Source: Parafrankia soli (GTDB taxonomy: Bacteria; Actinomycetota; Actinomycetes; Frankiales; Frankiaceae). From it: 35,109 nt of DNA. Made by a program: the position numbers and the translations under genes. Shown piece by piece: positions 1 through 1,469 of this stretch. Within the stretch, counting starts at the first letter, position 1. Each line of letters begins with the position of its first letter. The stretch lies in contig NZ_MAXA01000223.1 of assembly GCF_001854695.1 (NCBI RefSeq), positions 30,833 through 65,941 of the forward strand, in the 5' to 3' direction. The notes under the pieces were generated by a model that did not search any database, was not told the DNA's origin, and saw nothing but the letters and a program-made list of their open reading frames with translations.

Positions 1-675
1 CACCAGCCGGTCAACCGCGGCGGCCGGGGCCGACCAGTCGACGCGGACGTCCTCGACGGTGAGCTTCGGGGCCAGCGAGACACCGTCGGACGGCTGCGGG
101 CGGGCCTGCAGGGTGCCGTTCTCGATGCCGTCCATGACGGCCTCCAGCAGCCGCGCGCCGGCGACGGCGAGGCGGTCGAGGAGATCTCCGGACGTGTCCG
201 TGGGACGGATCCGCTCGGTGAGGACCCCGTAGACCGGGCCGGAGTCCAGGGCGGGCTCGATCTCGAACACGCTGGCGCCGGTCATGTCCTCCCCGGCGAG
301 GACGGCGCGCTGCACGGGCGCCGCGCCCCGGTAGGCCGGCAGCAGCGAGAAGTGCAGGTTGACCCAGCCGTGCTTCGGGATCTCCAGGGCCGGCCGGGGC
401 AGCAGCGCGCCGTAGGCGACCACCGGGCAGCAGTCGGGGGCGATCTCACCGAGCCGGGCGAGGAAGTCGGGGTCACCGGCGCGGGCCGGGGCCAGCACCT
501 CGAGACCACGCTCGTCCGCCAGCTCCCGCACCGGCGAGGACCGCTGGTGCCGGCCCCGGCCGGCGGGCCGGTCGGGACGGGTCACCACCGCGACCACCTG
601 GTGGCGGGGACTGTCGAGCAGCGCGCGCAGGCTGGGCAGCGCGACCGCCGGCGTGCCGGCGAAGACAAGACGCAT
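1..675 (-). CDS. fmt: Methionyl-tRNA formyltransferase, 3' end outside the window
   Basis: Formylates the amino group of Met on initiator tRNA using 10-formyl-THF, allowing bacterial translation initiation in the cytosol. The visible 225 residues begin [16 protein letters not shown], typical of the family, and contain the catalytic-loop motif [18 protein letters not shown] (Asn and His of the active site) followed by the conserved LDSGPV segment carrying the catalytic Asp. The formyltransferase domain is nearly complete; the C-terminal tRNA-binding OB-like domain (family length about 310) runs off the left edge. The ATG at 675 has a strong Shine-Dalgarno (GAGGGAG, 8 nt upstream). It lies just downstream of def, a common functional pairing: one enzyme adds the formyl group, the other removes it. 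Confidence 0.96.
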
Positions 676-688
676 GACCACAGCTCCC

Positions 689-835
689 TCAGCGCCGATC
701 CCGGGCCGGATCCCCGGCCGCGGATCCGATCGTCCCGACCATCATCACGATCATCGACCCGGCGGCGGACCCGATCGTCGACCCTACCGCCGTGCCGATC
801 ACCGTTCCGGTGGCCATCGTGGCGAGGACGGCCAA
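689..835 (-). CDS. Possible 48-residue glycine-zipper membrane peptide between def and fmt
   Basis: A short open frame fills the gap between def and fmt. From TTG at 835, preceded by AGGGAAAG about nine bases upstream, it encodes 48 residues that are almost wholly hydrophobic and small. Gly recurs every fourth position (residues 10, 14, 18, 22, 26), the GxxxG glycine-zipper pattern of packed transmembrane helices. The tail is polar and charged (DPARDRR). Codons have mostly G/C at position 3 and purine at position 1, like real genes here. Its TGA abuts and overlaps the fmt Shine-Dalgarno, suggesting translational coupling. The frame stays open upstream into def, so the start is uncertain. I know no family for it; it could still be a chance frame. 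Confidence 0.4.
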
Positions 836-858
836 CGCGATGATCTTTCCCTGGCGAC

Positions 859-1410
859 TCAGCGCCCGCGGCCGAACAATGGGTGCGGCGATACCTTGAC
901 CACGGGCTTCGGCTCGTTCGACCACTCCGCCTCGCGGATCGCCTTCATGGCCGCCCGCTTCGTCTCCTTGTCGAGACGGTCGATGAACAGGATCCCGTCG
1001 AGGTGATCGGTCTCGTGTTGCAGGCATCGGGACAGGATGCCACTGCCCTCGACCGTGACCGGGTCACCGTGGGAGTTCTGGCCGACGGCGAGGACGCGTT
1101 CCGGACGGCGCAGGTCGAATGCCAGCCCCGGCAACGACAGGCAGCCCTCCTCGCCGTCCATCATCTCCTCGCTGAAGGGCCCCAGGACCGGGTTGATCAG
1201 GTGCCCGACCTCGTCCGAGTCATCGAGATACGTGAAGACACGCAGCGACACCCCCAGCTGCGGCGCGGCGAGGCCGACGCCGCCGGCGTCGCGCATGGTC
1301 TCAGCGAGATCGTCAACGAGGCGGCGCAGCTCCCGGTCGAAGGTCGCCACCGGGTCGGCGACCGTACGCAGCACCGGATCCCCGAGAAGGCGGATATCAC
1401 GGACGGACAC
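859..1410 (-). CDS. def: Peptide deformylase
   Basis: Metal-dependent hydrolase removing the N-formyl group from nascent proteins in the cytosol. All three family motifs are present: GVGLAAPQ (motif 1), EGCLSLPG (motif 2, metal-ligand Cys) and QHETDHLDG (motif 3, HExxH with two metal-binding His and the catalytic Glu). At 183 residues it has the usual length. Two in-frame GTG codons compete: 1416 and 1410. I chose 1410 because GGGAG ends 5 nt upstream of it and would overlap the 1416 codon; the product then begins MSVRDIRLLGDPVLRT. It is transcribed toward fmt, with about 180 bases between them holding a possible micro-ORF. A -10-like TAGCAT lies about 60 bases upstream. Confidence 0.95.
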   Translation of the reverse strand: MSVRDIRLLGDPVLRTVADPVATFDRELRRLVDDLAETMRDAGGVGLAAPQLGVSLRVFTYLDDSDEVGHLINPVLGPFSEEMMDGEEGCLSLPGLAFDLRRPERVLAVGQNSHGDPVTVEGSGILSRCLQHETDHLDGILFIDRLDKETKRAAMKAIREAEWSNEPKPVVKVSPHPLFGRGR

Positions 1411-1469
1411 GGTCACTCCCAGAATGTCGTCACCTGACCGACCTCGGTCCGGCGAGATCGGACGCTTTC

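What the first reader, a model, noticed from the sequence alone, without database searches (positions are those of the whole stretch)
689..835. Glycine-zipper micro-ORF between def and fmt
A 48-codon frame between the deformylase and formyltransferase genes has gene-like codon use, a plausible Shine-Dalgarno before TTG, and a strict GxxxGxxxGxxxGxxxG pattern in a hydrophobic stretch. Its stop overlaps the fmt ribosome binding site. If real, it is an undescribed small membrane protein translated with the N-terminal formyl cycle enzymes, and might act as an oligomeric or pore-like peptide or as a translational coupling device.
Basis: partly seen in the sequence, partly recalled or inferred. Interest (0 to 1): 0.5.

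Follow-up and report, generated by a model that had tools for sequence, protein, structure and literature searches.

The report
Parafrankia small membrane protein gene
A tiny open frame between two housekeeping genes looks like a real gene for a small membrane protein, because the six related species examined keep its reading frame and protein sequence under selection, but what the protein does is unknown.

Summary
The micro-ORF is present as described (minus strand, 835 to 689, 48 codons, between def and fmt) and is very probably a protein-coding gene. The frame is intact in 6 of 6 held species of the genus (Parafrankia, named from relatives), with one whole-codon indel. Codon-model omega is 0.21 for codons 10-58 (2ΔlnL 36 against omega 1); all 15 pairwise dN/dS are 0.16-0.43. 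Four of five zipper glycines are invariant; the fifth position is G, S or T. One control spacer (priA-def) shows no such pattern. No convincing homologue appeared in 29 other Frankiaceae genomes, a class draw of 393 genomes (the six included), or plasmid, phage and viral collections. Profile libraries gave only weak matches. Best reading: a 48-58-residue helical membrane protein, perhaps self-associating through the zipper, co-translated with def and fmt. Pore, toxin or formyl-cycle roles have no support. It is a new member of a known kind: intergenic hydrophobic microproteins under purifying selection.

The parts
689..835 (-). micro-ORF as reported: TTG start at 835, 48 codons, TGA at 691-689
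   Evidence: frame intact in 6 of 6 genus genomes
689..862 (-). longer reading of the same frame: CTG at 862 overlapping the def stop as CTGA, 57 codons; shared by 6 of 6 species
   Evidence: K6 and I7 invariant; codons 2-9 omega 0.28, 2dlnL 7.0, but the column-shuffle test is inconclusive (145 of 2000)
758..808 (-). glycine zipper GxxxGxxxGxxxGxxxG; the first four Gly invariant in 6 of 6, the fifth position G in 2, S in 3, T in 1
713..856 (-). predicted single long helix (residues 3-50 of the 57-aa reading), followed by a charged tail
   Evidence: AlphaFold2, mean pLDDT 79.3, pTM 0.35, 5 sequences in the alignment
859..1416 (-). def, peptide deformylase, upstream neighbour; its TGA is 861-859
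   Evidence: name from the finding and the protein sequence, no family search run
1..675 (-). fmt, methionyl-tRNA formyltransferase, downstream neighbour (runs off the window)
   Evidence: name from the finding and the protein sequence, no family search run
684..691 (-). TGAGGGAG: micro-ORF stop overlapping the fmt Shine-Dalgarno; 13 nt from stop to fmt ATG here (15 nt in 4 of 6 species)

Best explanation
The frame is a genuine small protein-coding gene, most simply gained once in the ancestor of Parafrankia, in the spacer between def and fmt. Shown: the frame and amino-acid sequence look to be under purifying selection in six species. Inferred: the product is a 48-58-residue, mostly helical membrane protein with a basic N-terminus in the longer reading and a charged tail (DPxRDRR in 5 of 6). 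Inferred: the conserved small-residue face (G19, G23, G27, G31, small 35) packs helices together, either with itself or with a membrane partner. Inferred: ribosomes finishing def restart at or just after the def stop (CTGA, or an NTG/ATG about 25 nt further on), read the small gene, and end 13-15 nt before fmt, so the three are probably co-expressed. My commitment: it works as a small membrane-protein partner or regulator, unrelated to the formyl cycle except for shared expression.
For: Frame open in 6 of 6 species, one 3-nt indel only. Pairwise dN/dS 0.16-0.43 in 15 of 15 pairs. Codon model omega 0.206, lnL -471.5 against -489.6 at omega = 1. Column-shuffle test: sense frame 0 of 1000 shuffles as good, no stops. 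Negative control, the priA-def spacer of the same six genomes (80 ungapped columns): length 90-172 nt as cut, stops in each of six frames, no frame exceptional. No clear RNA-structure signal. Hydrophobic stretch with 19-residue mean hydropathy up to 1.94; AF2 one helix 3-50. The six form one clade, 100% support.
Against: No expression data of any kind. Six sequences represent about five lineages (L005 and L006 are near-identical), and pairwise counts reuse the same changes. Omega (0.206) is 2-5 times that of fmt (0.103) and def (0.043). The start codon is unsettled. The codon test assumes omega = 1 for non-coding DNA and models no position-specific GC bias; an antisense frame sharing third positions also scores well (0-1 of 1000 shuffles), though its ends differ between species. 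Only one control spacer was tested. The AF2 pTM is low, and a 48-residue helix is longer than one membrane crossing, so the topology is a guess. No partner was identified.
Confidence: 0.72

Rival explanations
1. Translational coupling element: the frame is read mainly to carry ribosomes from def to fmt across a spacer, and the peptide itself matters little.
For: CTGA overlap with the def stop in 6 of 6 and a stop overlapping the fmt Shine-Dalgarno in 6 of 6; spacer length held at 183-188 nt.
Against: Selection acts on amino acids (omega 0.21), with four invariant glycines and a conserved C-terminus; fmt has its own good Shine-Dalgarno (-8.5 to -9.3); other genera do without it.
Confidence: 0.12
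2. Pore-like or antimicrobial glycine-zipper peptide (holin-like, or bacteriocin-like as in Cdz).
For: Uninterrupted GxxxG run in a hydrophobic helix; weak holin match phrog_4237 at E 0.22; precedent of CdzC/CdzD (PMC5380434, passages seen) and of CDI ionophore toxins with a putative glycine zipper (PMC11630599, passages seen).
Against: No immunity or secretion gene next to it: its immediate neighbours are def and fmt in 6 of 6; 48-58 aa against 84-86; single copy in its genome.
Confidence: 0.07
3. Conserved non-coding DNA or RNA (attenuator, promoter for fmt) that happens to be open.
For: 30 of 36 columns of codons 36-47 are invariant; RNAalifold predicts 54 pairs, 4 of them with a both-sided change that keeps the pair.
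Against: Fold z-score -1.16, with 20 of 200 shuffles as good; covariation term unfavourable, +3.56; no Rfam match in the spacer up to E 1; changes concentrate at third positions of this one frame.
Confidence: 0.05
4. Chance open frame in high-GC DNA.
For: Long spurious frames are common here; the GxxxG regex hits 10 places in the window.
Against: Conserved frame, omega well below 1 and a negative control without the pattern.
Confidence: 0.04

Closest known systems
Intergenic small-ORF microproteins under purifying selection (Fesenko et al., 'The Cryptic Bacterial Microproteome', PMC11188072; abstract and outline seen)
   Same: 15-70 codons, intergenic, purifying selection, hydrophobic and potentially transmembrane
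   Different: That survey covered Enterobacteriaceae; this one is in high-GC Frankiaceae, between def and fmt, with a possible stop-start overlap
Pfam glycine-zipper families PF13488 Gly-zipper_Omp and PF05433 Rick_17kDa_Anti
   Same: GxxxG repeats in a hydrophobic segment; weak hits (15.9 and 11.5 bits for the 57-aa reading, 16.5 and 14.1 for the 48-aa reading)
   Different: All under the curated cutoffs (25 and 24.2 bits), and one relative given by itself had no Pfam hit up to E 10
Cdz glycine-zipper bacteriocin proteins CdzC/CdzD of Caulobacter (PMC5380434; passages seen)
   Same: Small, rich in Gly and small hydrophobic residues, extended GxxxG run
   Different: 84-86 aa with N-terminal regions resembling secretion signals, type I secretion genes and the immunity gene cdzI; none lies next to the gene here
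Romo1 (PF10247)
   Same: Small glycine-zipper membrane protein (recalled); the weak hit covers residues 12-44 of the 57-aa reading
   Different: E 0.28, 12.0 bits against a cutoff of 27.6: no membership

Membership tests
Intergenic microprotein genes under purifying selection | 15-70 codons in the space between two larger genes | tested here: met
   48 or 57 codons between def and fmt; the longer reading overlaps def by 4 nt
Intergenic microprotein genes under purifying selection | purifying selection on the amino-acid sequence | tested here: met
   omega 0.206, 2dlnL 36
Intergenic microprotein genes under purifying selection | transcription and translation | not testable with these tools
   no expression data held
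Pfam PF13488 Gly-zipper_Omp | score at or above the curated cutoff of 25 bits | tested here: not met
   15.9 bits (57 aa) and 16.5 bits (48 aa); 2 of 5 members hit at E <= 1
Pfam PF05433 Glycine zipper 2TM domain | score at or above the curated cutoff of 24.2 bits | tested here: not met
   11.5 bits (57 aa) and 14.1 bits (48 aa); 3 of 5 members hit at E <= 1, best E 0.081
Cdz-like contact-dependent bacteriocins | neighbouring type I secretion and immunity genes | tested here: not met
   immediate neighbours are def and fmt in 6 of 6 genomes; the wider neighbourhood was not searched for such genes
Phage holin (phrog_4237) | significant profile match | tested here: not met
   E 0.22 and 0.39; no relative found in phages or viral contigs
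Oligomeric glycine-zipper membrane protein | conserved small-residue face at i, i+4 spacing in a hydrophobic helix | tested here: met
   G19, G23, G27 and G31 invariant, 35 always G/S/T in 6 of 6
Oligomeric glycine-zipper membrane protein | demonstrated oligomer in membranes | not testable with these tools
   needs experiment

The most novel reading that the evidence does not exclude
A membrane microprotein gene born in the ancestor of one actinobacterial genus between def and fmt, translated by termination-reinitiation from a CTG that overlaps the deformylase stop codon, whose self-associating zipper helix acts on nascent-chain processing or membrane insertion at the point where N-terminal formyl groups are handled.
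Probability: 0.05. Interest if true: 0.7.

Novelty: new member of a known kind. Interest (0 to 1): 0.36.

Why it matters
It is a clean case of an orphan small, probably membrane-bound protein with measurable selection beside housekeeping genes. Six species keep it; in the other Frankiaceae genomes searched no copy was recognised. That makes it a tractable example for studying how small membrane genes arise in very high-GC genomes, and whether non-AUG starts at stop-codon overlaps are used. If ordinary, it still adds one gene to the annotation of six genomes.

Tried and rejected
Antisense frame: it shares third positions and scores second best (0-1 of 1000 shuffles). Rejected because its ends differ: in the two closest genomes a stop precedes it and it ends soon after the spacer, while in the other four it is open further on both sides. 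RNA element: rejected, although 4 of 54 predicted pairs show a both-sided change. Homologues: in 29 other family genomes (drafts included, one 63% complete) the best match is E 0.018. In the class draw of 393 genomes, 6 were true and 15 others lay at E 2.7e-4 to 0.0084; I judged these chance because they cover part of the query, 13 of the 15 inside open frames of 182 aa or more (where there were more, only 16 first-look candidates per genome were scored). None in plasmids, phages or viral contigs. PHROGs gave a weak match to a family of unknown function (phrog_17867, E 0.041), a holin at 0.22 and others weaker; NCBIfam's best was E 0.098. A weak hit upstream of fmt in one Frankia-like genome (L098, E 0.035) is an Arg-rich match to the tail and was dropped. 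DNA-level homology of the spacer in sister genera, which would show de novo origin: no nhmmer match better than E 0.97 outside the genus, so de novo birth and horizontal gain are not separated. Foldseek against the PDB: 0 matches; profile search of PDB sequences: 0. Literature: eight searches listed no paper on a small gene between def and fmt; several lists were capped (for example 10 of 5,276 papers), and the library holds open-licence papers only.

Rows dropped: the tree used 25 of 30 loci (L008 and L028 had no fmt match in the stretch; L010, L011 and L012 had incomplete fmt). The spacer length printed for L012 is not reliable (run of N). A1 holds 5 of the 6 genus peptides (L006 left out as near-identical to L005); all six were used. 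The gapped codon 48 was left out of the shuffle test; the control spacer was cut to 80 ungapped columns, and in four of six genomes its cut includes the 3-nt start codon of def. The upstream scan used 30 of the 31 fmt matches, 900 nt each (537 in L097).

Full report
What is there. The frame reported at 689-835 is on the minus strand: TTG at 835, 48 codons, TGA at 691-689. Upstream on the same strand is def (1416-859) and downstream fmt (ATG 675).

Is it a gene? In 6 of 6 genus genomes the frame is open from the def stop to a TGA 13-15 nt before fmt, the def-fmt spacer is 183-188 nt, and the only indel inside the frame is one codon. Identity of four relatives' peptides to the window copy is 70-91%. 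Pairwise NG86 dN/dS is 0.16-0.43 in all 15 pairs (codons 9-58), with dS of the same order as in def and fmt. A Muse-Gaut codon model on the def+fmt tree gives omega 0.206 for codons 10-58, 2dlnL = 36.1 against omega = 1; def gives 0.043 and fmt 0.103, so the small gene is less constrained than its neighbours. Shuffling alignment columns did not reach the score of the sense frame in 1000 trials. One antisense frame, which shares third positions with it, also scored high (0-1 of 1000), but its ends differ between the species. The priA-def spacer of the same six genomes, the one negative control, varies from 90 to 172 nt as cut and has stops in each of six frames and no exceptional frame. RNA structure is not supported (fold z -1.16; covariation term +3.56 with 4 of 54 pairs changed on both sides; no Rfam match in the spacer).

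Where it starts. A CTG overlapping the def stop (CTGA) is present in 6 of 6, but the end of def largely fixes those bases. Codons 2-9 give omega 0.28 with 2dlnL 7.0, while the shuffle test there is inconclusive (145 of 2000). Shine-Dalgarno strength is variable at both sites. I leave the start open.

What the protein looks like. A hydrophobic stretch from residue 7 to about 50 (57-aa numbering) carries G19, G23, G27 and G31, invariant in 6 of 6, and G/S/T at 35; the tail is DPxRDRR in 5 of 6 and NPARERR in one. AlphaFold2 gives one helix, residues 3-50, mean pLDDT 79.3, pTM 0.35. This is longer than one bilayer crossing, so a hairpin or a long tilted helix are both open. Pfam, NCBIfam and PHROGs give only weak matches: below cutoff for glycine-zipper families, Romo1 and MscL, and in PHROGs (no cutoff) a family of unknown function at E 0.041 and a holin at 0.22. 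PDB sequence and fold searches found nothing.

Who has it. A protein search of 35 family genomes finds the six and then E >= 0.018. A profile search of 393 class genomes finds the six at E < 1e-29 and 15 others at 2.7e-4 or worse. Scanning up to 900 nt upstream of fmt in 30 family loci finds only the six convincingly (next E 0.035 outside the genus). Plasmids, phages and viral contigs gave none. On a def+fmt protein tree of 25 loci the six form one clade with 100% support. No second long copy was found in its genome (the other DNA matches are 17-59 bases). In the other loci def and fmt are adjacent or separated by spacers of up to 1205 nt.

What it does. The best-supported account is a small membrane protein whose zipper face packs helices. 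It is probably co-translated with its neighbours, and I see no sign that it takes part in formylation or deformylation. Coupling as the sole purpose is disfavoured because the amino acids are selected. A pore or toxin role is disfavoured because no immunity or secretion gene stands next to it, in contrast to the Cdz system (PMC5380434, passages seen). These functional statements are inference.

Novelty. Intergenic, hydrophobic microproteins under purifying selection are an established kind (PMC11188072, abstract and outline seen); Streptomyces small proteins have been surveyed (PMC10654065, abstract and outline seen). This family passed no cutoff in the libraries searched, and eight literature searches, several with capped lists, listed nothing on it.

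Noticed in passing
L077, L081-L084, L087, L088, L093, L094, L097, L098 upstream of fmt: In the Frankia-like genus g5 the best-scoring matches to this def are only 44-52% identical, and in at least L087, L097 and L098 fmt is preceded by what reads by eye as the end of priA, so the def of this slot seems to be missing there.
   Followed up: partly
L010, def-fmt spacer (1065 nt): The spacer in this g6 genome is over 1 kb and appears by eye to carry antisense open frames like a small toxin-antitoxin pair; no family search was run on them. L013 seems to hold remnants.
   Followed up: no
L014, L019, L020, L076, L078, L080 upstream of fmt: A shared CGCCGCTAGGTTAG-like block roughly 75-110 nt before fmt in genus g6, possibly an fmt promoter that the Parafrankia spacers lack (by eye).
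   Followed up: no
L017, def-fmt spacer (193 nt): The spacer is built largely of about five tandem copies of a unit of roughly 27 nt (by eye).
   Followed up: no
window 722-757, minus strand: DNA of codons 36-47 is almost invariant (30 of 36 columns) even at many third positions; partly explained by Met codons, but possibly an added DNA or RNA constraint.
   Followed up: partly
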